In this document: positions 37,468 through 61,236 of the stretch, piece by piece
How positions within the stretch are numbered: the stretch's first letter is position 1
Layout of the letters: every line of letters begins with the position of its first letter
Source of the DNA: Betaproteobacteria bacterium
Lineage (GTDB): Bacteria > Pseudomonadota > Gammaproteobacteria > Burkholderiales > SG8-41
Direction of reading: 5' to 3'
Length of the DNA: 64,000 nucleotides
Assembly (NCBI GenBank): GCA_025363575.1
Contig: JANYDM010000063.1
Location: 1 to 64,000 of the forward strand
Translations under genes and position numbers: made by a program
The notes under the pieces: model-generated
What the model saw: only the letters and a program-made list of their open reading frames with translations
Databases searched by the model: none
Told to the model about the DNA's origin: nothing

Positions 37468-37559
37468 ATTACCCTCGTCCGTCAGCTTCGAATACCGGCG
37501 AGGTGGCTAGCGCGAACCCGTTAAGCCGTTGTAATTCCGATCGTTTCCCGGGCCACTGC

Positions 37560-38372
37560 GTGACTATCGACCACTACGAAAATTTTCCTGTTGCGTCGGT
37601 GCTGATGCCCGCGCGTTTACGCCGGCCGGTAGAACTCATTTATCGCTTTGCCCGCACGGCGGATGATTTCGCGGACGAAGGCGACTTGCCCGATGCAGAG
37701 CGGCTCGCGCTGCTCGCGGGCTATGGCACCGAATTGCGCTTGATTGAGCGTGGCTCTCAGCCGAAAACCGCGCTTTTCCGCGATCTTGCGACAACGATCG
37801 CAGAGCACTGCCTGCCGCTGGCGTTGTTCCACGACCTCCTGTCGGCGTTTGCCCAGGACGTGACAACAAAACGCTACGCCGACCTGCCTGCAGTGCTCGA
37901 CTATTGCCGGCGCTCCGCCAATCCCGTCGGACGTCTCCTGCTGGTCTTGTATGGGGCCGATACGCCGCAAAACAACGCGTGGTCGGACAAGATCTGCTCA
38001 GCGCTGCAGATCATCAATTTTATGCAAGACATCGCAATCGACTATGCAAACGGGCGCGTCTATATGCCGCAGGACGACCTCGCCCGCTTTCACGTCGGCG
38101 AATCGCAGATAGCCGCGCAAGAAGTGAACGGCGCATGGCGCGCCTTCATGGCGTTCGAAGTTACGCGGACGCGACGCTTGCTGCTTGACGGCGCGCCCCT
38201 GGGCCGCGTTCTCAGGGGCCGCATCGGGCTCGAAATGCGCATGATTATTGCCGGCGGCGAACGCATTCTGCACAAGATCGAAAGCACCGGCTATGACGTA
38301 TTCCGCCGCCGCCCCGTGCTACGCTCCGTCGACTGGGTGTTGATGTTCGCCCGCACCTTCTCTCTCCGTTGA
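37560..38372 (+). CDS. hpnC: Squalene synthesis protein HpnC (hydroxysqualene synthase type)
   Basis: A 270-residue all-helical prenyl synthase. The first Asp-rich motif is RTADDFADEGD and the second is DIAIDYANGRVYMP. With HpnD and HpnE it turns two farnesyl diphosphates into squalene by way of presqualene diphosphate and hydroxysqualene, feeding hopanoid or carotenoid synthesis. I chose the GTG at 37560 because VTIDHYENFPVAS is the family N-terminus; another GTG at 37503 would add 19 unlike residues. It overlaps or abuts hpnD. Confidence 0.9.
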   Translation: MTIDHYENFPVASVLMPARLRRPVELIYRFARTADDFADEGDLPDAERLALLAGYGTELRLIERGSQPKTALFRDLATTIAEHCLPLALFHDLLSAFAQDVTTKRYADLPAVLDYCRRSANPVGRLLLVLYGADTPQNNAWSDKICSALQIINFMQDIAIDYANGRVYMPQDDLARFHVGESQIAAQEVNGAWRAFMAFEVTRTRRLLLDGAPLGRVLRGRIGLEMRMIIAGGERILHKIESTGYDVFRRRPVLRSVDWVLMFARTFSLR

Positions 38373-38386
38373 ACGCAGCCACAACC

Positions 38387-39220
38387 GTGACCCCCGACGA
38401 GTATTGCCAGCAGAAGGCATCGCAAAGCGGCTCGAGCTTTTACTACAGCTTTCTGTTCCTGCCGCCGCCGCGCCGGCGCGCGATCACCGCGCTGTATGCA
38501 TTCTGCCGCGAGGTAGACGACGTCGTCGATGAATGCACCGATCTGGATGTCGCCCGCACCAAGCTCGCGTGGTGGCGCACCGAAGTCGCGGCAATCTACG
38601 CGGGCCACGCGCGGCATCCGGTCGCGCTGGCCCTCGCAACCGTCATTACGTCGATCAAGCTGCCGCAGGAACGGCTGCAGGAAATCATCGATGGCATGGA
38701 AATGGATCTGACGCAGCACCGCTACGTCGATTTTGCGGCGCTGAAGCTTTATTGTTATCGCGTCGCCGGCGTCGTCGGCCTGCTGTCCGCCGAAATATTC
38801 GGCCATACCGATTCGCGCACCCTCGTCTACGCGGAAAATCTGGGCATCGCGTTCCAGCTCACCAATATCATCCGCGATGTTGGCGAAGATGCGCGCCGCG
38901 ACCGCATCTATCTGCCGCTCGACGAGCTGGCGCGTTTCAACGTGCCGGCCGCTGACATCATGCACGGACGCGCGACGCCGCAATTCCAGGAATTGATGGA
39001 ATTCCAGGTCGGCCGCGCGCTTGGGTATTATCGCGATGCCTTTGCGGCGCTGCCGGCGGACGACCGCAAGGCCCAACGCCCCGGCCTGGTGATGGCGGCG
39101 ATTTATCAGACGTTGCTCGCCGAAATCCGCGCCGACGGCATGCGCGTGCTGACACAGCGGACCTCGCTGACCCCGCTGCGCAAGCTGTGGATCGCGTGGC
39201 GCACGTGGATGAAGGGGTGA
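38387..39220 (+). CDS. hpnD: Presqualene diphosphate synthase HpnD
   Basis: A 277-residue prenyl synthase with Asp-rich motifs REVDDVVDE and RDVGEDARRDRIYLP and the family N-terminus TPDEYCQQKASQSGSSFYYS. It condenses two farnesyl diphosphates. The start is probably the GTG at 38387; a TTG at 38369, overlapping the hpnC stop, would add six residues. Neither has a strong ribosome binding site, consistent with coupling to hpnC. Confidence 0.9.
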   Translation: MTPDEYCQQKASQSGSSFYYSFLFLPPPRRRAITALYAFCREVDDVVDECTDLDVARTKLAWWRTEVAAIYAGHARHPVALALATVITSIKLPQERLQEIIDGMEMDLTQHRYVDFAALKLYCYRVAGVVGLLSAEIFGHTDSRTLVYAENLGIAFQLTNIIRDVGEDARRDRIYLPLDELARFNVPAADIMHGRATPQFQELMEFQVGRALGYYRDAFAALPADDRKAQRPGLVMAAIYQTLLAEIRADGMRVLTQRTSLTPLRKLWIAWRTWMKG

Positions 39221-39295
39221 CTTGCAACCCCGCACGGTAAAATCGACGGCTTGCGATTTTACAGATCGAGAATTTCTGCCGAGGAGTTGACTGCA

Positions 39296-40051
39296 ATGGA
39301 TCTGCAACTGAAGGGAAAAACCGCGCTCGTCACCGGCGCCAGCCAGGGCATAGGACGCGCGATCGCCAAGGGGCTCGCCGCCGAGGGCGTAAGAATTTGC
39401 ATCGCCGCACGCCGGCGCGAACTGCTCGACGCACTGGCGAAAGAAATAGTTGCCGCAGGCGGAGCGCAGCCGCAGATCGTGATAGTCGATGTCATGGAAG
39501 AAGGCTCGCCGCAGAAACTCGCGCAGGAAGCCATCAGGAGTCTCGGGCAGGTCGACGTGCTGATCAACTGCGCCGGCGGCAGCCGCCCCGCAATACCTGT
39601 CGATGCGCCCGAATCGGAATGGAGCGAAGTCATGACGCTCAACTTTGTGCGCGTGCGTCAGCTGACGCACGCAGTGCTGCCCGACATGATCGAGCACAAA
39701 TGGGGACGCATCGTCAATATCACCGGCAAATCGGAACCCGATGGATTGCTTGCCGCGACGCCCGCGAAAGCAGCGATGCATGGCTGGGCCAAGGGACTGT
39801 CGCGCGAAGTAGGTCCGCATGGCATCACCGTCAACTGCATTCCGCCCGGCCGCATCATGAGCGAGCAGATACGCCGCAAGTACACGCCGGAATTTCGCGC
39901 CCGGCAGTCGCAAGAAGAAATACCAATGGGTCGCTACGGCGAGCCGGAAGAACTCGCGTGCCTCGCAGTATTTCTCGCCTCGCCCATTGCCGGCTATATC
40001 ACTGGGGCTGTCATGCCGGTGGATGGCGGCTTGCGACGCTATGCATTCTGA
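39296..40051 (+). CDS. SDR-fold protein lacking the catalytic Tyr
   Basis: A 251-residue short-chain dehydrogenase/reductase fold. The cofactor motif TGASQGIG (residues 13-20) and NCAGG are intact, and the C-terminal PVDGG block is present. However, the YxxxK motif reads AATPAK, so the usual Tyr is Ala154 while Lys158 stays, and the catalytic Ser position is also changed (NITGKSEP). GAGGAG 10 bases upstream sets the ATG at 39296. It lies inside the hpn cluster, between hpnD and hpnE. It may be a non-classical reductase or a cofactor-binding accessory protein; the substrate is unknown. Confidence 0.85.
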   Translation: MDLQLKGKTALVTGASQGIGRAIAKGLAAEGVRICIAARRRELLDALAKEIVAAGGAQPQIVIVDVMEEGSPQKLAQEAIRSLGQVDVLINCAGGSRPAIPVDAPESEWSEVMTLNFVRVRQLTHAVLPDMIEHKWGRIVNITGKSEPDGLLAATPAKAAMHGWAKGLSREVGPHGITVNCIPPGRIMSEQIRRKYTPEFRARQSQEEIPMGRYGEPEELACLAVFLASPIAGYITGAVMPVDGGLRRYAF

Positions 40052-40259
40052 AAAAATGCCTGCGCGCAAACGTACCGCAGTCCGTGTGATGACAGCTCTT
40101 ATGACGGGACAGTACGCGACGGCTGCAGTTGCCTGGGCCCGGTTCATACGCGATACCGGATGGAAGCTCGATTAGCCGGATTGGAGGCAGTGTGGGTCCA
40201 CAATTGACTCGCGCTGTTTTGCCTTCTGTCATGCAGCTGCCTGCACAGGCAGTGTCCGG

Positions 40260-41549
40260 ATGACCCATGTCGCGGTAATCGGCGGCGGTTATGCCGGTAT
40301 GGCCGCCGCCGCGACGCTCGCCGGGGGCAACGTGCCCGTGACGGTATTCGAGGCCGCGCGGCAGCTCGGTGGACGTGCGCGCCGGGTCGACTACCGGGAC
40401 ATGGCCCTCGATAACGGGCTGCACATCCTGATCGGCGCGTACACCGAAACACTGCGTCTGATCGAACTTGTGAATCCCGCGCACGCCGCTGCGCTGCTGC
40501 GGCTGCCGCTCGACTGGCGCGTACAGGGAGAATTTCATCTGCGCGCGCCGCGCGTTCCGGCGCCGCTGCACCTCTTGATCGGACTACTGCGCGCCGAGGG
40601 CCTGAATGCGGCAGAGAAATTTGCGACTATTCGCATGCTCATTGCGTTACGTGCCTGCCGCTACACGCTGACGCACGACATCAGCGTCGAGCTTCTGCTC
40701 GAACGGCATCGGCAAAGCGAAACACTGCGACGCGTATTGTGGCGCCCGCTGTGCGTGGCGGCGCTGAATACGCCGCCCGCGATCGCGTCGGCACAGGTTT
40801 TCCTTAACGTGCTGCGCGATAGCCTGGATGCCACGCGCGCGGCCAGCGACCTGCTGCTGGCGCGGGTCGACCTGTCGGCGTTGTTCCCCGAGCCCGCCGC
40901 GGTCTACGTCGAGAAGCGGGGCGGCACGGTGCGACGCGCGCAACGCGTGACAGCAATCGACCAGTCAGGCAATGAATTCGAAATCGAAGCTGATGGTCAG
41001 CGCAGCCGCTTTACTCATGTCGTGTGCGCAATAGCACCGCACCAGGTCAATGCGTTCCTGATCGGCATCACGGCGCTCGCCGATATCGCCGGCACCATTG
41101 AGCGGCTGCGTTATCAGCCGATACACTCCGTATGGCTGCAATACCCGGCACCGGTAGCGCTGCCGTTTCCCATGTTGGGACTTACGCGCGGTCTTATCCA
41201 CTGGGTGTTCGATCGCGCAACGCTGTGCGGGCAGAGCGGGCTGGTTGGCGCCGTGATCAGCGCCACGGGCGAACATCAGGAGCTCACGCAGGAGGAGCTC
41301 GGCATGCGCGTGCACCGTGAGCTGCAGCAACAGGTCGGCGGCCTGCCCGCCCCACTGTGGACCCGTGTCATCGCCGAGAAGCGCGCGACCTTCGCCTGCA
41401 CTGCGGGCGTCAGGCGTCCGCCGCAAATTACCCCGCTCACGAATTTCTATCTCGCCGGCGACTACACAGCGAGCGACTATCCGGCGACTATCGAGTCGGC
41501 GATCAGGAGCGGCGTGACGTGCGCGCAGCAGATACTGCAACGTGCGTGA
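40260..41549 (+). CDS. hpnE: Hydroxysqualene dehydroxylase HpnE
   Basis: A 429-residue FAD-dependent amine-oxidase/phytoene-desaturase-type enzyme. The dinucleotide motif is VIGGGYAGMAAAATLA, followed by EAARQLGGRARR. The C-terminal FAD site is NFYLAGDYTASDYPATIESA. It reduces hydroxysqualene to squalene. It follows the SDR gene by 208 bases, which hold no other gene. Confidence 0.92.
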   Translation: MTHVAVIGGGYAGMAAAATLAGGNVPVTVFEAARQLGGRARRVDYRDMALDNGLHILIGAYTETLRLIELVNPAHAAALLRLPLDWRVQGEFHLRAPRVPAPLHLLIGLLRAEGLNAAEKFATIRMLIALRACRYTLTHDISVELLLERHRQSETLRRVLWRPLCVAALNTPPAIASAQVFLNVLRDSLDATRAASDLLLARVDLSALFPEPAAVYVEKRGGTVRRAQRVTAIDQSGNEFEIEADGQRSRFTHVVCAIAPHQVNAFLIGITALADIAGTIERLRYQPIHSVWLQYPAPVALPFPMLGLTRGLIHWVFDRATLCGQSGLVGAVISATGEHQELTQEELGMRVHRELQQQVGGLPAPLWTRVIAEKRATFACTAGVRRPPQITPLTNFYLAGDYTASDYPATIESAIRSGVTCAQQILQRA

Positions 41550-52330: not shown

Positions 52331-52525
52331 TCAGCCCAAGTGATTTACCACTTCAAGCATAGCCGCCGCGTTAGTCACTCCGTTGAGTGTCACCGCCGCG
52401 AGCGAATTCTTCAGCATCACATAGTCGGTCTTTCCGTTACCGAGCAGCGGCAATTCCGAGACATGCTCGATGCGTCGGGCGACCGCAAGGTCCTGACTGT
52501 CTAGTGGTTTCGCATCAACTTTGCT
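52331..52525 (-). pseudogene. 3'-terminal relic of an AMP-binding acyl-CoA/acyl-ACP synthetase (Aas-like)
   Basis: A 65-codon reverse-strand open stretch with no start codon of its own ends at a TGA (52331-52333). It reads ...AVARRIEHVSELPLLGNGK, then TDYVMLKNSLA. LPLLGNGKTDY is the C-terminal catalytic Lys motif of the AMP-forming synthetase family; the Aas type has GKTDY. All upstream parts are missing: the frame closes at 52526-52528 where AT-richer sequence begins. It marks the left edge of the accessory segment. Confidence 0.75.
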
Positions 52526-52698
52526 TCAGCGCAGCAATTTAAAAAATATACTTGATCAATTGTCATCAGGTTTTGGACAGATGCTGGTGTGTTATCTGCA
52601 AATACCAGAATCGTCTTCGTCAATTAAAGCCTTTTTTGTTGGATGCTTTCCTGGCGTATAGTACAGTTCGTTATTCGATCATTACGTTGCACACAATT

Positions 52699-54216
52699 AT
52701 GACGAAACTGCGAGTGGTCCTGATAAAACCGAGCAAGTATGCCATTGACGGCTCGGTCGAGCGTTTTAAAAAGGGATTTTTACCTAACGCAACGCTCTAC
52801 CACATCGCAGCACTGACGCCCGCATGCATTGGCGACGCGCGGATTTCTGTTCACCTAGTTGACGAATACGTATGGCAGGATCTCGACTACCTGCGCTGGC
52901 TGGAAAAAGAGCCGGGAGAGATCACGCTCGTGGCACTGGTCGGCGTCCAGTCCCACCAATTTCATCGCGCGCTGGATATCGCGGCCTATGCGCATCATCA
53001 CGGCGTGAGCCATTGCGTGATAGGTGGACCGCACGTAATGACTTGCGACACCACCGCTCTTCAAGGACGAGGCGTAAGCTTTGCTTTAGCTGAAGCGGAA
53101 TTGATTTGGCGGCAAATTTTGGATGATGCTATTGCAGGGGAGTTGCAGCCGACCTATGGCAGCCATCAACGCTGGGCTGAGACGCTTCCAAACACCGTTA
53201 TCAATCCGCCAACCACGGACGAGCTTGCGCGATACACGGAACCGTTGCTGGGACTCTATCCGGTTCGTGGGTGTCCGTATAAGTGCAATTTCTGCTCCGT
53301 AATCAAGATTTCCGGTCGCCAAGTGCGCAGTCCCGATATTGAGAGCACGTTGGAAAGTTTGCGGCGCGCAAAGCACGGCGGGGTGGAAAAGATAATGTTT
53401 GTTTCCGACAACTTCAATAAATTTCCCGCCGTCAGGGATTTGCTACAGGCAATGATAGACGAGCAGCTGACTGTCCGTTTTTCTTGTCAGTGCGACACCC
53501 AGATCGCCAAAGACCCCGCTCTGGTAGCTCTCCTTGGTCGCGCGGGTTGTGGCGAAATGTTTGTAGGAGTCGAATCGTTTAACCGCAAGACATTGAAAAT
53601 GGCAGGCAAGCACCACAATCATCCAACGCAATATGCGGAGATTGTTAGCCTTTGTAACGAAGTCGGTATTCGCGCACACTTCTCAAGTATTCTCGGCTTT
53701 CCGGACGATAGTGAGGCCGAAATCCTGCATCATCTGGAAGTATTAAAAAGCCTGCATCCCCGCCAGGCGTCTTTTTTTATTTTGACTCCAATTCCCGGAA
53801 CCGAGCAGTACGACGAGTTCCGGAAAGCCGGGTTGATAACAGAGCGCAATCTGGATCGATTTGATTCAACTCGCCCAACTTGGTCACATCCTACATTGCC
53901 ACCTAAGCTCCTCGAAGAACTACTTTATAAGTGCTACATTAATTTTTACGGTTTTCTTCTTAAAAAACGAGGGCTGACTGATGAAGAACAACGTATGGCC
54001 GTTTACCACCGCTACACGGCCGCACAGCGAACCCATCCCATGTCAGGCGGAGTTACGAGGGTTTGGCTGGATAACGCCGCAGACTTTGCGGGCCTGCGGC
54101 GCGCAACGTTTGACATCGATCTCGTCCCACTACCCAACAGTCTTTCACTGTCTGGGAGAGAAGCCGCGCTCAATAACAGGATTAAGCTTCGGCGCGTAAC
54201 GTCCGCACTTGCGTAA
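52699..54216 (+). CDS. B12-binding-type radical SAM protein
   Basis: A 505-residue protein. Residues 1-150 resemble a cobalamin-binding Rossmann domain (LRVVLIKPSKY, LVALVGVQSHQFHRAL, HCVIGGPHVM). The radical SAM core follows, with cluster cysteines at 192, 196 and 199 in RGCPYKCNFCSV, then FVSDNFNKFP and GVESFNRKTLKM. The C-terminal 150 residues have no known domain. Such enzymes often methylate unreactive carbons or rearrange substrates. The ATG at 52699 is chosen (MTKLRVVLIKPS); a start 49 codons upstream adds a Cys-rich unlikely leader. The next genes are an ACP and a ketosynthase, so the substrate may be acyl or ACP-bound; unproven. Confidence 0.85.
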   Translation: MTKLRVVLIKPSKYAIDGSVERFKKGFLPNATLYHIAALTPACIGDARISVHLVDEYVWQDLDYLRWLEKEPGEITLVALVGVQSHQFHRALDIAAYAHHHGVSHCVIGGPHVMTCDTTALQGRGVSFALAEAELIWRQILDDAIAGELQPTYGSHQRWAETLPNTVINPPTTDELARYTEPLLGLYPVRGCPYKCNFCSVIKISGRQVRSPDIESTLESLRRAKHGGVEKIMFVSDNFNKFPAVRDLLQAMIDEQLTVRFSCQCDTQIAKDPALVALLGRAGCGEMFVGVESFNRKTLKMAGKHHNHPTQYAEIVSLCNEVGIRAHFSSILGFPDDSEAEILHHLEVLKSLHPRQASFFILTPIPGTEQYDEFRKAGLITERNLDRFDSTRPTWSHPTLPPKLLEELLYKCYINFYGFLLKKRGLTDEEQRMAVYHRYTAAQRTHPMSGGVTRVWLDNAADFAGLRRATFDIDLVPLPNSLSLSGREAALNNRIKLRRVTSALA

Positions 54217-54309
54217 GGCTATCCGCATCTCATTCGCCTCCCGAATCAATTAGGCTATCTTACGGCTACATTGTAGATAGTTACCTCAGTGGCTCTGGAC
54301 CAAAGAAAT

Positions 54310-54564
54310 ATGGAAAACGACGTACAACTGCGCGTGCTGCGAATCATCGCCGAGATTCTGGAAAAAAATGAACAGGAAATTTCACTTGATGCCTCTCTGG
54401 ATAAGGATCTAAATCTTGACTCGCTTAAGCAAATGACACTTTTCATACTTCTCGAAGACGAGTTTAATCGAACAATGCCACCGGACGATTTAATAGAGAT
54501 CGCCAGCGTCAAAGACATTATCGATTTCATAAATAGGAAACTGAAAGAACCTGCCCCGACATGA
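54310..54564 (+). CDS. Acyl carrier protein
   Basis: An 84-residue acidic four-helix carrier protein. The phosphopantetheine Ser is S38 in LNLDSLKQM (variant of the usual DSL motif). The ATG at 54310 is preferred over an in-frame GTG at 54289. Its stop overlaps the ketosynthase start by 4 bases, so the two are made together. It is not the general fatty-acid ACP, which would sit with fabD/fabG/fabF. It probably carries a specialised acyl chain for this locus. Confidence 0.85.
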   Translation: MENDVQLRVLRIIAEILEKNEQEISLDASLDKDLNLDSLKQMTLFILLEDEFNRTMPPDDLIEIASVKDIIDFINRKLKEPAPT

Positions 54565-55925
54565 GGCGTCGCGTCGTAATAACTGGCGCCGGGATTGTCA
54601 GTACTAATGGTATCGGCGTAGAAAAGTTTTGGCGTAACTGTCTCGATGCCAAAACAACGGTTGCACCAATCCCCGCACGTTGGAGTTCCTACGCTGCGCC
54701 GCGCTCGCGGATCTGGTCACCGCTTCCAGATTTCAATTCTGAATCGATGGGCATCGGGCGAGCCGAACAATTGCAGCTCGATCAAGTTACTGTACTTGCG
54801 CTGGTGGCAACTCGCGAGGCGCTGGAAAATGCCGGATTTGTGCCTGTGTCAGTAAATGGAAGCTCGCGAGTATTCAAATTGCCTGGCACGGATGACTCCC
54901 GGACGGGTGTATTTCTAGGGACAGGTTTAGGTGGAGCGAACACCTTTCTTCAGAACCATACCTATCATCTGCTTCATGGACCGCGGGCCGATCTATTGGA
55001 CTACGCTGAAAAACACGCCCCCGCGGGCGATCGCGAAAAATTACAAAATATTCTTTCACTGACTAACCACGGTCCCCGATTTAATCCATTCGAAGTTTCC
55101 ATGGTAATGCCGAATGCAAGCGCCGCGGCAATCGCAATTAGGTATTCGATCACCGGTCCTAATACGACGTATTGTGTCGCGTGCGCGTCAGGCACGATCG
55201 CTATTGGTAACGCCTATCGCGCAGTGCGAGAGGGTACCGTTGACGTTGCTATTAGTGGCGGATGCGAGTACTTCGGCGATGAGCATGGCCACATCTTTCA
55301 CAGTTTCGACGTGACAGGCGCCCTGCTAAGGGAGTGCGCCGATCCGACAACTGCCAATCGCCCTTTCGACGAAAAACGTTCGGGATTCCTGTTCGCGCAG
55401 GGTGGGGCCGCAATTCTCGTTCTGGAGGAACTGGAACATGCGAAGCGCCGGCGCGCAAACATCGTCGCTGAAGTCGGTGGATATTCTGAATCTTTCGACG
55501 CCTACTCGATGATGCGGCTCGCCCCGGGCGGGCAACAGATTGAAAACATGCTAAATATGGCGCTTGCCGATGCAAGTGTACATGCGCATGAAGTGGATTA
55601 CATCAACGCCCACGGTACAGGAACTGTCAATAACGATGAAACTGAAGCCGACGTAATTCAGCGCGTATTCGGCAAGTCAGTTCGGGTTAATTCCACTAAG
55701 TCTCTGGTCGGCCATGCAATTGGCGCGAGTGGGGCAATCGAAATACTTGTCACAGCGCTCTCGCTACGTGATCAGACAACGCATATCTGCAAAAATCTGG
55801 ACAACCCGTTACGTGACCTCAACTTTGTGCGATCGAGCGGCCCAATGCATTTGCGGGTCGGCCTTTCGCAGTCGTTTGCTTTCGGTGGACACAATGCAGC
55901 TGTAGTCTTAAGTCAATCGGCCTAA
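54561..55925 (+). CDS. Beta-ketoacyl-ACP synthase (FabF/KAS II type)
   Basis: A 454-residue thiolase-fold condensing enzyme. The catalytic triad is complete: Cys208 in TYCVACASGT, His351 in NAHGTGT and His385 in GHAIGASGA; Lys380 (NSTKSLVGH) is also kept. It is about 40 residues longer than FabF, mainly from an insertion-rich region at residues 40-115 (substrate/dimer side). It condenses malonyl-ACP with an acyl chain, probably on the ACP encoded just before it. No chain-length-factor, KR or dehydratase gene is present, so partners must come from elsewhere. Confidence 0.9.
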   Translation: MRRRVVITGAGIVSTNGIGVEKFWRNCLDAKTTVAPIPARWSSYAAPRSRIWSPLPDFNSESMGIGRAEQLQLDQVTVLALVATREALENAGFVPVSVNGSSRVFKLPGTDDSRTGVFLGTGLGGANTFLQNHTYHLLHGPRADLLDYAEKHAPAGDREKLQNILSLTNHGPRFNPFEVSMVMPNASAAAIAIRYSITGPNTTYCVACASGTIAIGNAYRAVREGTVDVAISGGCEYFGDEHGHIFHSFDVTGALLRECADPTTANRPFDEKRSGFLFAQGGAAILVLEELEHAKRRRANIVAEVGGYSESFDAYSMMRLAPGGQQIENMLNMALADASVHAHEVDYINAHGTGTVNNDETEADVIQRVFGKSVRVNSTKSLVGHAIGASGAIEILVTALSLRDQTTHICKNLDNPLRDLNFVRSSGPMHLRVGLSQSFAFGGHNAAVVLSQSA

Positions 55926-56171
55926 AATTAGCCATTGCATCAAGCGGCTACTGCCTACAACAGTAATGGTCCCGCCACCGAATTGAGTTGGCAATGTCAT
56001 CGCCATAGGCGTGGGGCTATATCCCTCCGCAGTTTTGACAAAGGCTGCCCCCCAGCGTAGCCTGATTGTCCCTAAAAACAGATAGATACACTATTTGGCG
56101 CATAGGCGCCGATGAATTAGCGCCATAAGGTAGTTTGTTGGCGCGCCGAATGTAGTTATTGGGAGGATGTG
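55926..56171. other. Intergenic region upstream of rpfG with repeated GGCGC motifs
   Basis: About 245 bases with no gene. Between 56094 and 56155 there are several GGCGC/GCGCC half-sites, partly palindromic (TTGGCGCATAGGCGCC, TTAGCGCCATAA, GGCGCGCC). They could be an operator near the rpfGC promoter. No certain -35/-10 pair was found. Confidence 0.35.
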
Positions 56172-57299
56172 ATGAAGACTTTGCCGCGGCCTATCTCACT
56201 CGTGCGTTCCATTACCGGCCAAACTGCCAGACAGAACACAGTCATGATCGTAGACGACCAGTCAACGGGGCGCGTGATTCTTGCCGAGATAGTACGCAAT
56301 ATTGACAGATTCGTTGACGCTGTCACTTTTGAAGACCCCGAGGCTGCGCTCGATTACGCACGCACGCACACAGTCGACATGGTAATCACGGACTACCAGA
56401 TGCCAAAAATGAACGGCGTTGGTCTGGTCCGGGAGTTGCGTAAGGTGTTCCGCGACGATTCCGTACCAATAGTGGTCATTACTGTCGACAAGTTGCCTGA
56501 AGTGCGATATCAGGCGCTCAATAGTGGCGCTATCGATTTCCTGACTCGCCCGATCGACCGAATTGAATACGGGCAGCGTTTCAAAAATCTACTGGCTTTG
56601 CGGCGCCACGAGATTGAGAACGCAAACCGGCGCAAATGGCTTGAGGAAAAAGTCCAAGCTGCAACTCAGGAACTTCGACGACGCGAAGTAGACACATTAT
56701 TCCGCTTGTCACGAGCGGCCGAATCGCGCGACCAAACCACTGGGCTACACCTTCCCCGGATGGCCAAATATTCCGCGCTGATCGCCAAAGGTTATGGCCT
56801 TTCCGTGCCCCAGCAGGAAGCTATCGAGTTGGCTGCGCCCATGCATGACCTGGGAAAAATAGGAATTCCCGATCGAATTTTGCAATCTGGAGGCAAATTG
56901 TCTTCCGAAGAGATGGCCGTCATGAGAACACATACTTCGATCGGGTATGACCTTTTGAAAGACAGTAGTTCGGAATATCTGCAAATGGGCGCGGTGATCG
57001 CGCTCGGCCATCATGAAAAATATGACGGGGGCGGTTATCCCAATGGCCTCAGAGGAGAGGCCATCCCACTGGAATCGCGCATAGTCGCAGTTGGCGATGT
57101 CTTTGACGCGCTTACCTCAATACGCCCCTATAAAAGTGCCTGGAAGCCCGATCAGGCCTTTGCATGGATGAGCGAACAAGCTGGCCGCCATTTCGACCCT
57201 GAACTCGTTGATGTGTTGATACGCTCGCGAGAGGAGGTTCTTGTCATCGCCGCCCAGTTTTCGGATCAAGCGCCCTCGTCGAATATATTGACTTCATGA
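56172..57299 (+). CDS. rpfG: RpfG-type response regulator: REC plus HD-GYP c-di-GMP phosphodiesterase
   Basis: A 375-residue two-domain regulator. The receiver domain (residues 24-135) has the acidic pair in MIVDDQ and the phospho-acceptor Asp74 in VITDYQMPKMNG. The HD-GYP domain (about residues 170-365) has HD at 225-226 in MHDLGKIGIPD and GYP at 288-290 in HHEKYDGGGYPNGLRG, so the active site looks intact. When phosphorylated it is expected to hydrolyse c-di-GMP. GGGAGG lies 5 bases before the ATG at 56172. It is followed 13 bases later by an RpfC-type kinase, as in the rpfGHC operon of Xanthomonas (rpfH absent). Confidence 0.93.
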   Translation: MKTLPRPISLVRSITGQTARQNTVMIVDDQSTGRVILAEIVRNIDRFVDAVTFEDPEAALDYARTHTVDMVITDYQMPKMNGVGLVRELRKVFRDDSVPIVVITVDKLPEVRYQALNSGAIDFLTRPIDRIEYGQRFKNLLALRRHEIENANRRKWLEEKVQAATQELRRREVDTLFRLSRAAESRDQTTGLHLPRMAKYSALIAKGYGLSVPQQEAIELAAPMHDLGKIGIPDRILQSGGKLSSEEMAVMRTHTSIGYDLLKDSSSEYLQMGAVIALGHHEKYDGGGYPNGLRGEAIPLESRIVAVGDVFDALTSIRPYKSAWKPDQAFAWMSEQAGRHFDPELVDVLIRSREEVLVIAAQFSDQAPSSNILTS

Positions 57300-57312
57300 G
57301 GATAATAAGCCT

Positions 57313-59829
57313 GTGGAGTTTTTAAGTTGGGCTAAAACGCGGCTCTCTGGCCGCAGCGACTCGGAACACGAGCAGGCAATGCTACGCTTGTTGCTCGGCC
57401 TATGCACAATCGCGTACCTGCAACATGCGGCAATTCAATATCCAAACGTTTGGCTATACGCGTCTGGAGCCTACGTGGCGGTTATGGTGCCGAGCCTGGT
57501 TGCCGGGCTAATCATCATCGCCTGTATTCTTGCTTGGCCACAACCCTCTACTACCAGGCGGGTAATCGGGAACATTGTCGACGTTGCGGTAATAACGTTT
57601 CTCATGATCCACGGCGGAGAATATACGGCGCCGTTTTTTGGCATCTACCTTTGGGTGACATTCGGCAACGGGTTTCGTTTCGGCTCTCGCTTTCTTGCAA
57701 GTTCGTTAGCGCTGAGTACTGTCGGCTTCGTGATAGTTCTCGCCACCAGCGACTATTGGGCACAAAACCGCCATCTCGGAGTCGGCCTGCTAATAGGCAT
57801 GATCGCCCTGTCGCTGTACGTATTGATGTTAATCAAACGATTGTATGAAGCGCTAGAACGCGCGGCGACGGCAAATCAGGCAAAGCGCGCCTTTGTCTCG
57901 TCCGTCTCACATGAATTACGAACACCGCTCAATGCCATCATCGGCATGAATGACCTGTTGCGAACAACCCCACTTAATGCCGAGCAATCCGAGATGACGA
58001 ACACCATGCACGGCGCATCCCGTGTAATGCTCTCGTTAATCGAAGACGTGCTCGATTTCTCCAAAATTGAGGCTGGCAAGCTTACTATTGAATCTGTCGA
58101 TTTCGACTTACATGCTTTGATTCAGAGCACAGTAATCATCTTCTCGCGCCAAGCAGCGATGAAGGGGTTAAAGCTGGGCGTATTCGTGATGCCTGACGTC
58201 ACGCCTACATTGAAAGGCGGCGCCCATCATCTCCAGCAGATATTAGTCAATCTGATCGGGAACGCAGTCAAATTCACCGAGCGCGGCGAAGTCCATCTTG
58301 CCATATCTGCACTTATTGACAGTCAGCAATCTATTCGTCTCCGATTTGCGGTGCGCGATACGGGTATTGGAATTCCGAAGCCTGACCAACAGCGGATTTT
58401 TGAATCATTCTCCCAAGCCGAATCACCAAGCGACCGCAAGCATCGGGGTACCGGGCTTGGGACAACTATCGCCAAGCAGCTCGTCGAATTAATGGGAGGC
58501 ACGATCGGGCTCGAGAGCGCACCCGGCGCCGGCAGCACTTTTTGGTTTGAGGTCTCTTTTGCCAAACAAAGCGCTGCGAGTGCGGAAAGCCAGGCGCGAT
58601 TCCGGGAAAGCCGCGCGTTGCTCGTGCAATTCCCCGACAAAGCGCGAAAGGAACTCGCGGCCGATCTAAAGCAGTGGGAAATGGAATCGAGCGTCGCCGA
58701 AAGTATCACCGTCGCAGCTGCACGTTTGAGCGAAGCTGCCGCACTGGGCCGTCCGTATCGTATTGTTTTGATATACGCCGATAATACAGACCTGAATATT
58801 GCACACGCCGCGTCCGAATTGCGTGAGCAAAATCTCAAGTCTCTTTCGCTTATCCTGTGTGCGCCGCGGCATGTAGCCCTACTTTGGGGCACGCGCTTAC
58901 CGGGAGAGTTTTCCTCAATCGTCGGTCTGCCTGCAGAAAAGCGCCTGCTTTATAACGCATTGCATTCAGTGCTGGCGAGCGAGGAAATGGCCGCGGGCGT
59001 CATTTCGCTTAGCGAGTACTATCAGCGCAAGGAACCCACCAGGTCTTACAGTATTCTCGTCGCCGACGACGATCATATCAATCGCACGGTAATATCCAAA
59101 CAGCTTGAAATGGCTGGGCACCGGGTGAAACTCGTTGTCGACGGCGAAAAAGCGCTGGATGAATTACAACAAAGCGACTATGACCTTGTTATCCTGGATT
59201 CGCACATGCCTGTGATGACGGGTCTCGAAGCTACCCGGCTAATTCGCGTGATGCAGGCCGGGCGTGCCGGCGTACCTATTATTATGTTCTCGGCAGATGC
59301 GACTCCCGAAACAATCGAAGAAGCACTCGATGCCGGTGTTAGTCTGTTTCTCCCAAAGCCGCTCGAAGCGAGCAGACTCTACGCTGCAATCGAGCAACTG
59401 GTTGACAAGGTTGCCAAAGATACATCCAAGGTCATACAGATATTCGGCGGGCAACAAGCCGCGCGCCCTCCGCTAGTTAACATCAACACCCTTCACGATC
59501 TCGAGCGTATGAGTCACGATACGCAGTTCGTTCACAACCTCGTAAAACTATTCGTCGAAGACAGCTTTCAATTAGTAGTCAAAATCGAAAAGTCGCTAGC
59601 AAATCGACGCCAGGAAGAGTTCCGGTCGCATATGCACGCGCTCAAAGGCTCGGCTCTCAACCTTGGTGCAGAGCGCCTATTCACTCATTGCTCCAAACTG
59701 GGAGCAACAAGCAACCGCCAATTAGACGAATCTTCGGCCGCTCTGGCGGCGGAAACTCGAGTGATAGTCACCGATACGCACGCGGCACTCAGTGATTACG
59801 TCAAAAACCGCAATAAAGCGACTCTATAG
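57313..59829 (+). CDS. rpfC: RpfC-type hybrid sensor histidine kinase
   Basis: An 838-residue inner-membrane kinase. Five or so membrane segments fill residues 25-175, the DSF-sensing input in RpfC. The HisKA domain has His200 in SSVSHELRTPLN, and the ATPase domain has N and G boxes (NLIGNAVKF; GTGLGTTIAKQL). A receiver has Asp629 in VILDSHMPVMTG and an HPt domain has His775 in HALKGSALN. Between ATPase and receiver, about residues 430-570 look like a second receiver that lost its Asp. The RpfC of Xanthomonas (about 726 residues) lacks that piece. The start is a GTG. It ends 4 bases from the convergent rpfF stop. Confidence 0.92.
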   Translation: MEFLSWAKTRLSGRSDSEHEQAMLRLLLGLCTIAYLQHAAIQYPNVWLYASGAYVAVMVPSLVAGLIIIACILAWPQPSTTRRVIGNIVDVAVITFLMIHGGEYTAPFFGIYLWVTFGNGFRFGSRFLASSLALSTVGFVIVLATSDYWAQNRHLGVGLLIGMIALSLYVLMLIKRLYEALERAATANQAKRAFVSSVSHELRTPLNAIIGMNDLLRTTPLNAEQSEMTNTMHGASRVMLSLIEDVLDFSKIEAGKLTIESVDFDLHALIQSTVIIFSRQAAMKGLKLGVFVMPDVTPTLKGGAHHLQQILVNLIGNAVKFTERGEVHLAISALIDSQQSIRLRFAVRDTGIGIPKPDQQRIFESFSQAESPSDRKHRGTGLGTTIAKQLVELMGGTIGLESAPGAGSTFWFEVSFAKQSAASAESQARFRESRALLVQFPDKARKELAADLKQWEMESSVAESITVAAARLSEAAALGRPYRIVLIYADNTDLNIAHAASELREQNLKSLSLILCAPRHVALLWGTRLPGEFSSIVGLPAEKRLLYNALHSVLASEEMAAGVISLSEYYQRKEPTRSYSILVADDDHINRTVISKQLEMAGHRVKLVVDGEKALDELQQSDYDLVILDSHMPVMTGLEATRLIRVMQAGRAGVPIIMFSADATPETIEEALDAGVSLFLPKPLEASRLYAAIEQLVDKVAKDTSKVIQIFGGQQAARPPLVNINTLHDLERMSHDTQFVHNLVKLFVEDSFQLVVKIEKSLANRRQEEFRSHMHALKGSALNLGAERLFTHCSKLGATSNRQLDESSAALAAETRVIVTDTHAALSDYVKNRNKATL

Positions 59830-59833
59830 ATTC

Positions 59834-60763
59834 CTATCGCGTCGCCGCCTGCATTTCGACGGTGTTGTCAGTGGGGGCTGTGACTGTATTCCGCTTCAAG
59901 CGATTTTGCGATTGCACTATTCGCGTCATCACCCGGAGATCCTTATCTTCAAGCCTAAGCGCGGCATCGACCCAAATAGTGGTTACCTTCATCAATTCCT
60001 CGTGCGTGATTGGAAATACCGCTTGTCGCGCCTGATAAGTCGCCATCACGCCATTACGGCGCTTCTGTGTCTTTCTAACGTAATCATATAAGGCCATTTC
60101 CCCTTGTCCCGCTTGAACCACAATGTCAACAATGCCCATTTCCTGCAACTTAGCAGCCGAATACAGATTACCGGACAGAATCATTTTTTCGGCCATTCGT
60201 GCACCAACGCGGCGTGTGAGTAGACTATAGGCTCCCATACCTGGAAACATATTAAATAGAATCTCCGGCAGGCCCATTTTTACCTGCTCTTCTGCAATGA
60301 TCACATCGTTTGCCAAAACACCTTCGAATCCGCCGCCTAATGCATCGCCTTGCACGAGAGCAATAGTAATTAGATTCGGGACATTATGATTGCGAACGCG
60401 CGAATAAAGGTTATCGATCGCAAGCGTGGCATAGCTCATCAGCGCATCGCGGTCCATCTGTGCGATGCATTGCATGAAGTATGCAAGGTCCCCGCCTAGA
60501 TTATAAATCCCCGGGATGCGGGAACCTGTCACGTAATAATGGACTGGACGTAATTGTCCCTCGCTGTATACACGCCCGCCGTTGCTTTCGAACAAGCGAT
60601 CATGCTTACGGATATCTTCGAGCAGTTTTAGAGTGGCGTTTGGCCCGCTTTGCGGACTATAAAATCCTCGTAGAATGGCGCATTCTGAGTCGATCTCCGT
60701 CTCAAATTCCGTTAGATTCAAACTGCGCTGTACTGCGAGATGCTGAACGGTTGCTGTCTGCAT
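59834..60763 (-). CDS. rpfF: RpfF-type DSF synthase (crotonase fold)
   Basis: A 309-residue enoyl-CoA-hydratase-fold enzyme that makes diffusible signal factors, cis-2-unsaturated fatty acids, from 3-hydroxyacyl-ACP by dehydration and thioester cleavage. The family signature VQGDALGGGFEG is present, with catalytic Glu147, and Glu167 in MGLPEILFNMFPGMGAYS, spaced 20 residues as in Xanthomonas RpfF (141 and 161). GAGGGGGGC just upstream sets the ATG at 60763. It is convergent with rpfC, the gene order of Xanthomonas. No rpfB-like ligase is in the window. Confidence 0.93.
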   Translation of the reverse strand: MQTATVQHLAVQRSLNLTEFETEIDSECAILRGFYSPQSGPNATLKLLEDIRKHDRLFESNGGRVYSEGQLRPVHYYVTGSRIPGIYNLGGDLAYFMQCIAQMDRDALMSYATLAIDNLYSRVRNHNVPNLITIALVQGDALGGGFEGVLANDVIIAEEQVKMGLPEILFNMFPGMGAYSLLTRRVGARMAEKMILSGNLYSAAKLQEMGIVDIVVQAGQGEMALYDYVRKTQKRRNGVMATYQARQAVFPITHEELMKVTTIWVDAALRLEDKDLRVMTRIVQSQNRLKRNTVTAPTDNTVEMQAATR

Positions 60764-60944
60764 GATGCCCCCCCTCAAAGTAAAGACACAGAAATGTCAG
60801 AAGCCGGACGTGCAATCCGCATGCGGCGGGCTGGCGCGCCCAGACTGGCTGATTTGAGTCTAGCCCAACCGTCGGCGCCAACGCAAAGTAATGTGAAATT
60901 GTTCTCACTTGCCAGGAAGACCAACTTCGCTGTTAAAGCCTGAA

Positions 60945-61236
60945 TCGCCGGTATCCACGGAGATATGCAAGGAGTTCGACTACCTGACGATTGACGGAGG
61001 CCTGATCGGCAGCCTGGCTGACAAATAGGGTGGCAATAGCCTTTTCGTCAAAGCCGTCAAAGTCGCCAGCGGCATGCAAAAACAGGTGATCGCGGAACAG
61101 ATGGAAACACCCGGCGCCCTCAAGCTATTGCAACAGATCGGCGCCCAATACGGTCAGGGGTATTTATTTCAAAAAACCGATCACGCTCGATCGTCGGAAC
61201 GACAACTACCCCGAGGAAATCGTCGGCGCAGCGTAA
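60945..61236 (+). pseudogene. Decayed EAL-domain (c-di-GMP phosphodiesterase) gene, C-terminal part
   Basis: A forward-strand relic reads CKEFDYLTIDGGLIGSLADK, a TAG (61026-61028), then NSLFVKAVKVASGMQKQVIAEQ and GALKLLQQIGAQYGQGYLF. These match the last third of an EAL domain (FDYLKIDGxFV, VKAIxxIAxxMGxxTIAE, LGxxYxQGYLF). A frameshift near 61168 moves the tail into a frame ending PEEIVGAA at a TAA (61234-61236). It lacks the N-terminus and the EAL motif itself. It is divergently adjacent to rpfF, the position of rpfR in Burkholderia, which also has an EAL domain. Confidence 0.75.

What the first reader, a model, noticed from the sequence alone, without database searches (positions are those of the whole stretch)
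56172..60763. Complete Rpf/DSF quorum-sensing module (rpfG-rpfC convergent with rpfF) in an apparent betaproteobacterium
The sequence shows an RpfG-type REC/HD-GYP protein with intact Asp74, HD and GYP motifs. It also shows an RpfC-type kinase with His200, Asp629 and HPt His775, and an RpfF-type enzyme with both catalytic Glu residues. The gene order is that of Xanthomonas, with rpfH and rpfB missing. In Burkholderia the usual DSF receptor is the soluble RpfR, so a Xanthomonas-style two-component module here is notable. That the organism uses a DSF is inference.
Basis: partly seen in the sequence, partly recalled or inferred. Interest (0 to 1): 0.85.

Follow-up and report, generated by a model that had tools for sequence, protein, structure and literature searches.

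The report
Bacterial signal module with dedicated fatty-acid genes
A known fatty-acid-based bacterial signalling system (RpfF makes the signal, RpfC and RpfG sense it) sits here next to its own ketosynthase, acyl carrier protein and radical-SAM enzyme, and relatives of the ketosynthase usually sit beside the same signal-making gene, which suggests that these bacteria may build a custom version of the signal.

Summary
At 56172-60763 lie rpfG and rpfC, convergent with rpfF, with the stated residues present. RpfC also carries the five N-terminal residues reported as needed for DSF sensing in Xanthomonas (RxDSExxQ, residues 14-21).

The claimed surprise is not one. Convergent rpfC occurs at 61 of 80 RpfF loci from genomes, 34 of them with rpfG too. 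A 2015 review lists rpfF-rpfG-rpfC clusters in Thiobacillus and Methylobacillus.

This ketosynthase forms its own clade (100/100). In 18 genomes carrying it, an ACP adjoins it in 18, rpfF lies within 4 kb in 16, and rpfF occurs somewhere in 18. The window's ketosynthase groups with a Sulfuricaulis-containing clade, but its RpfF with mostly betaproteobacterial RpfFs.

Best reading: a DSF system with a dedicated, transferable precursor-making cassette, perhaps giving a non-standard DSF. The core is ordinary; I found no description of the ketosynthase-linked variant in ten searches of an open-licence library.

The parts
52699..54216 (+). radical SAM protein (505 aa from ATG; alternative TTG start at 52552), CxxxCxxC motif, N-terminal Rossmann-like domain
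   Evidence: Pfam PF04055 9e-19; AF2 model pLDDT 68, top folds AprD4, TsrM, MgmA
54289..54564 (+). acyl carrier protein gene, phosphopantetheine Ser45 (counted from the GTG); overlaps the ketosynthase gene by 4 nt
   Evidence: PF00550 1.7e-13; Ser45
54561..55925 (+). ketosynthase of an rpf-linked clade, 454 aa, Cys208, His351, Lys380, His385 present
56172..57299 (+). rpfG: REC plus HD-GYP response regulator
57313..59829 (+). rpfC: hybrid kinase with hydrophobic input region, HisKA, HATPase, REC, HPt
57352..57375 (+). DSF-sensing motif RSDSEHEQ (RpfC residues 14-21), equivalent by spacing to Xcc Arg15, Asp17, Ser18, Glu19, Gln22
59834..60763 (-). rpfF: crotonase-family DSF synthase-like enzyme, Glu147 and Glu167
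52400..61000 (.). low-GC block (about 0.49-0.55 in 1-kb steps) that roughly spans these six genes in a background of about 0.60

Best explanation
This is a DSF-type cell-cell signalling locus with its own precursor-making genes. The ketosynthase extends an acyl chain held on the neighbouring ACP; a housekeeping reductase would turn it into a 3-hydroxyacyl-ACP; the radical SAM enzyme may alter the chain (reaction undecided). RpfF then makes the cis-2 double bond and releases the free acid. RpfC senses that acid through its RxDSExxQ N-terminus and relays phosphate (His200, Asp629, His775) to RpfG Asp74, which turns on c-di-GMP breakdown. Shown here: the genes, the motifs, the linkage of ketosynthase and ACP to rpfF in the genomes examined, and the pairing of the cassette with different RpfF lineages. 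Inferred: the chemistry, the order of steps, the relay and the signal's structure.
For: Genes and motifs. RpfC sensor residues. In 18 genomes with the ketosynthase (re-found two of them), an ACP adjoins it in 18 of 18, rpfF is within 4 kb in 16 of 18, rpfC is in the fetched stretch in 15 of 18. Each ketosynthase-positive genome also has an RpfF match: 6 of 6 (67 of 369 genomes have RpfF), 5 of 5 (18 of 57) and 11 of 11 (15 of 36), hypergeometric p 3e-5, 2e-3 and 2e-6; the sets share four carriers and kinship is ignored. The ketosynthase clade is 100/100. The window's radical SAM, KS and ACP are 69, 66 and 51% identical to those of G497, and its KS sits with G497, G824 and G825, while its RpfF sits with mostly betaproteobacterial RpfFs. 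One low-GC block holds the six genes. RpfF acts on 3-hydroxyacyl-ACP (review passage), which a ketosynthase and ACP could supply after one reduction.
Against: No chemistry was tested. Most rpfF loci seen here do without it: no ketosynthase of this clade in the fetched flanks of the 80 loci, so it is not needed for DSF signalling as such. The radical SAM gene was found at only 3 of the 18 loci (one of the others is cut off upstream). 12 of 15 RpfCs at ketosynthase-linked loci lack the full sensor motif, so the linkage does not go with one sensor type. 0 of 399 genomes of G001's order (G001 is a betaproteobacterial MAG; order not named by the tool) carry the ketosynthase, so it is rare there. 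In the window the cassette is not on rpfF's strand.
Confidence: 0.5

Rival explanations
1. The cassette is the output, not the input: the Rpf system makes an ordinary DSF and controls the neighbouring ACP-ketosynthase-radical SAM genes, which make some other lipid or metabolite.
For: In the window the cassette runs in the direction of rpfG-rpfC (246-nt gap) and not on rpfF's strand; the RpfC sensor has the canonical DSF residues.
Against: In G497, G824 and G825 rSAM, ACP, KS and rpfF follow each other on one strand, convergent with rpfC. At the other linked loci ACP, KS and, as a rule, rpfF and rpfC are what recurs, which seems too little for a separate product (inference); L100 and L102 share three more genes with each other.
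Confidence: 0.25
2. An ordinary RpfF-RpfC-RpfG module; the cassette is an unrelated neighbour that travelled along by chance.
For: The core module is common without it: 34 of 80 loci have convergent rpfC plus rpfG, none with a ketosynthase of this clade in the fetched flanks.
Against: 16 of 18 ketosynthase loci have rpfF within 4 kb, 18 of 18 carrier genomes have RpfF, and the cassette is paired with different RpfF lineages.
Confidence: 0.12
3. RpfF here serves the cassette as a biosynthetic dehydratase/thioesterase for a non-signal product, and RpfC-RpfG senses membrane or fatty-acid state.
For: RpfF scores 218.7 bits against NCBI's RpfF equivalog (cut-off 550) and 345.6 against the broad PRK08788 crotonase family (cut-off 177).
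Against: Of 35 RpfF-like genomes tested (of the 67 found) only 1 passes that cut-off, so the model is narrow; RpfC keeps the five DSF-sensing residues.
Confidence: 0.13

Closest known systems
RpfF/RpfC/RpfG DSF system of Xanthomonas campestris
   Same: Gene order rpfG-rpfC convergent with rpfF (order per review passage), domain make-up, catalytic residues, five sensor residues
   Different: No rpfH or rpfB seen at the locus; radical SAM, ACP and ketosynthase genes added; RpfF below NCBI's RpfF equivalog cut-off
rpfF-rpfG-rpfC clusters of Thiobacillus, Methylobacillus and others (PMC4504480, passages)
   Same: Same core module, betaproteobacteria included
   Different: No ketosynthase of this clade in the fetched flanks of the 80 RpfF loci, three named Thiobacillus loci (L055, L069, L077) among them
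RpfF/RpfR system of Burkholderia
   Same: RpfF-type synthase
   Different: The neighbouring receptor here is a hybrid membrane kinase, not a PAS-GGDEF-EAL protein
   Same: Radical SAM 69%, KS 66%, ACP 51% identical, rpfG and rpfC nearby
   Different: Cassette is on rpfF's strand there but precedes rpfG-rpfC here; RpfF 45% identical and in another part of the tree
FabF (beta-ketoacyl-ACP synthase II)
   Same: Family and catalytic residues
   Different: Separate clade; FabF equivalog cut-off not met: 333.6 against 493.75

Membership tests
RpfF (DSF synthase) | two catalytic glutamates of the crotonase fold | tested here: met
   Glu147 and Glu167, equivalent to Glu141/Glu161 of the passages
RpfF (DSF synthase) | closest solved relatives are of RpfF type, not ordinary enoyl-CoA hydratases | tested here: met
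   four chains at 4e-52 or better, two named RpfF; next chain 4e-16
RpfF, NCBI equivalog NF053515 | 550-bit curated cut-off | tested here: not met
   218.7 bits; 1 of 35 RpfF-like genomes tested passes it. Not filed as that equivalog
RpfF (DSF synthase) | makes a cis-2-unsaturated fatty acid from 3-hydroxyacyl-ACP | not testable with these tools
   no assay
RpfC (DSF receptor kinase) | HisKA-HATPase-REC-HPt with phosphorelay residues | tested here: met
   His200, Asp629, His775
RpfC (DSF receptor kinase) | N-terminal sensor residues Arg15, Asp17, Ser18, Glu19, Gln22 (PMC5391125, passages) | tested here: met
   residues 14, 16, 17, 18, 21
RpfC (DSF receptor kinase) | five transmembrane helices in the input domain | tested here: inconclusive
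   plain hydropathy lists five segments, two of them overlapping, between residues 46 and 178
RpfC (DSF receptor kinase) | input domain related to that of an RpfC beside an equivalog-level RpfF | tested here: met
   36%, alignment of 185 positions, E 8e-23, to the RpfC of G686
RpfG | REC plus HD-GYP with intact motifs | tested here: met
RpfF/RpfR (Burkholderia type) | PAS-GGDEF-EAL receptor beside rpfF | tested here: not met
   neighbour is RpfC; the rest of the genome is not held
FabF | NCBI FabF equivalog cut-off | tested here: not met
   333.6 against 493.75 bits
cobalamin-dependent radical SAM methyltransferase | cobalamin-binding domain and methyl transfer | tested here: inconclusive
   weak model; listed folds include cobalamin methylases (TsrM), the dehydratase AprD4 and the methylthiotransferases MiaB and RimO; no Pfam B12-binding hit

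The most novel reading that the evidence does not exclude
A transferable ACP-ketosynthase cassette, here with a radical SAM enzyme, has been attached more than once to DSF systems and makes a structurally new DSF-family signal whose chain is built at least partly outside general fatty-acid synthesis; at many related loci the RpfC sensor has changed with it.
Probability: 0.4. Interest if true: 0.75.

Novelty: new variant of a known kind. Interest (0 to 1): 0.5.

Why it matters
DSF signals are described as made by RpfF from 3-hydroxyacyl-ACPs of the general fatty-acid cycle (passages). A transferable ketosynthase-ACP pair tied to RpfF would be a dedicated supply line that could set signal identity, and would predict private DSF 'dialects' in Sulfuricaulis-like bacteria and other lineages. 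It gives a short list of genes to delete or express and a product to look for by mass spectrometry.

Tried and rejected
Rejected: 'Xanthomonas-style module in a betaproteobacterium is notable'. Rejected: RpfF as an ordinary hydratase, on scores; the tree held no ordinary hydratase. Rejected: the cassette ketosynthase as housekeeping FabF; the ten rows labelled FabF there are simply the best ketosynthase matches of ten other genomes, and one of them (L081, long branch) fell with L017 and L063 instead of with the other nine. The ketosynthases near rpfF in L017 and L063 are not of this clade. Promoter and terminator scans found fewer sites than shuffled sequence gives. Rfam gave only tRNAs. No RpfC tree was made. 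The RpfF tree is a quick one with long branches and its deep order is unsure. (0 of 399) scored at most four candidates a genome among those it listed; the same query rang. Organism names of PDB chains (Xanthomonas, Cronobacter) are recalled, not in the calls.

Literature: ten searches. 33, 34, 58 and 59 returned nothing; one (rpfF with ketosynthase) returned 3 papers: passages of two show no ketosynthase linked to rpfF, and the third, PMC11138164, was seen only in the listing. Passages were also seen of PMC4504480, PMC9040794, PMC4136832, PMC5391125, PMC9040811 and PMC9864630; other papers only as listings. No paper was read in full. Most subscription papers and all bioRxiv preprints are missing from the library.

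Full report
Observation. rpfG and rpfC are 13 nt apart, and the stops of rpfC and rpfF are 4 nt apart.

Identity. Four solved chains match RpfF at 4e-52 or better, two of them named RpfF; the next is at 4e-16. It passes NCBI's broad PRK08788 family (345.6 bits, cut-off 177) but not the RpfF equivalog (218.7, cut-off 550). I tested that equivalog on 35 of the 67 RpfF-positive genomes; 1 of 35 passes. The RpfC receiver's best solved match is the chain named RpfC. The RpfC input domain is 36% identical (E 8e-23) to that of G686, the genome that passes. Cai et al. 2017 (PMC5391125, passages; author name recalled) report Arg15, Asp17, Ser18, Glu19 and Gln22 of Xanthomonas RpfC as essential for sensing DSF; the window has all five in the same spacing (residues 14-21). 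With Ser or Thr at the Ser18 place, the motif is in 28 of 67 RpfC-like proteins from the 80-locus set (12 Ser, 16 Thr; 35 other, 4 partial). In the paper the S18T variant still worked.

How ordinary is the module? 61 of 80 have convergent rpfC with the input domain; 34 of these also have a long rpfG match on the same strand within 8 kb, as in the window; 9 have rpfC otherwise placed or cut off; 10 have none in the stretch, several of them near a contig end. Many are titled Betaproteobacteria or Burkholderiales MAGs.

What was missed. Upstream, on the same strand, lie a radical SAM gene (52699-54216), an ACP gene (54289-54564) and a ketosynthase gene (54561-55925, overlapping the ACP gene by 4 nt), then a 246-nt gap before rpfG. 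In 1-kb steps GC is 0.485-0.547 from about 52.5 to 61 kb against about 0.59-0.65 on either side; by gene it is 0.42 (ACP) to 0.53. The low-GC block roughly spans the six genes, so they look like one unit of distinct composition, perhaps acquired.

Linkage. The ketosynthase was sought in 399 genomes of G001's order (0 hits; G001 is a betaproteobacterial MAG), 369 genomes of G019's class (6), 57 of G497's order (5) and 36 of G506's order (11); (3 genomes) re-found two. That makes 18 distinct genomes. Neighbourhoods of all 18 were fetched and read: ACP adjoins in 18, rpfF within 4 kb in 16, rpfC in 15, rpfG in 4, radical SAM in 3. The two without rpfF nearby are on contigs of 8.4 and 4.1 kb; both genomes have RpfF on another contig. 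In the 8.4-kb one no rpfF lies in the 6.5 kb after the ketosynthase; its upstream side is cut off. Conversely RpfF is found in 67 of 369, 18 of 57 and 15 of 36 of the same groups, and every ketosynthase carrier is among them (hypergeometric p 3e-5, 2e-3, 2e-6). These p-values ignore kinship and the sets share four carriers; adjacency is the stronger evidence.

History. In the ketosynthase tree the 19 rpf-linked members (18 plus the window) and 11 database relatives form one clade at 100/100. The window's ketosynthase lies inside the group holding G497, G824 and G825. The window's RpfF instead sits in a mostly betaproteobacterial set of 33 rows (SH-aLRT 98) with Derxia and a Collimonas protein, away from the RpfFs of those three genomes; ketosynthase linkage needs at least three changes on that tree, two of them forced by well-supported branches. 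The cassette and the rpf module therefore seem to have different histories. In G497, G824 and G825 the order is rSAM-ACP-KS-rpfF, convergent with rpfC; in the window rSAM-ACP-KS-rpfG-rpfC, convergent with rpfF. The same partners in two arrangements argue for a functional tie.

Close relatives. The three protein tables (best 120 each) share several unusual longest-contig lengths: 18949 and 29209 in all three; 29343, 23273, 18600, 18524 and 17098 for RpfF and ketosynthase. Matched by eye, this only hints that close relatives carry the same pairing; I had no tool to fetch that DNA.

Radical SAM enzyme. The AF2 model is middling (pLDDT 68, pTM 0.64). Best folds are AprD4, TsrM and MgmA; AprD4 and TsrM align over both the N-terminal domain and the barrel but with rmsd 12-14 A, and MiaB and RimO follow closely. 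Methylation and other reactions remain open; no Pfam B12-binding domain was hit.

Mechanism and rivals. RpfF turns 3-hydroxyacyl-ACP into a cis-2 acid (review passage). A ketosynthase and an ACP next to it could supply that substrate; the reductase would be housekeeping FabG (inference). The main rival is that the cassette is a regulated output. Against it: at the 15 linked loci without the radical SAM gene, ACP, KS and, as a rule, rpfF and rpfC are what recurs, although L100 and L102 share three more genes. For it: in the window the cassette runs with rpfG-rpfC, not with rpfF. Of 15 RpfCs at linked loci 12 lack the full RxDSExxQ motif: six show LGELAQ, four a similar stretch, L148 keeps DTExxQ without the Arg, and L101 has none; the three loci with the radical SAM gene, and the window, keep it. 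That is consistent with different signals, but not proof.

Verdict. Confirmed observation, ordinary core, and a ketosynthase-linked variant of the DSF locus for which I found no description in ten searches of an open-licence library.

Noticed in passing
L017:14607-15842 and L063:6163-7419: Other FabF-like ketosynthases near rpf genes, outside the rpf-linked clade; possibly an independent pairing.
   Followed up: partly
L162:2589-5321: RpfC of the genome with an equivalog-level RpfF is 910 aa with two copies of the input domain, like a fused RpfH-RpfC.
   Followed up: no
L099, L100, L102, L149-L152, L154-L156: These ten RpfCs at ketosynthase-linked loci lack the RxDS sensor residues; six carry LGELAQ instead, perhaps a different ligand.
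   Followed up: partly
L097:5046-5705 and L145:4360-4920: A second RpfC-like match lies before the full RpfC in G497 and G824.
   Followed up: no
window 37503-41549: Two squalene-synthase-like proteins, an SDR and a desaturase-like protein, perhaps hopanoid genes, by eye.
   Followed up: no
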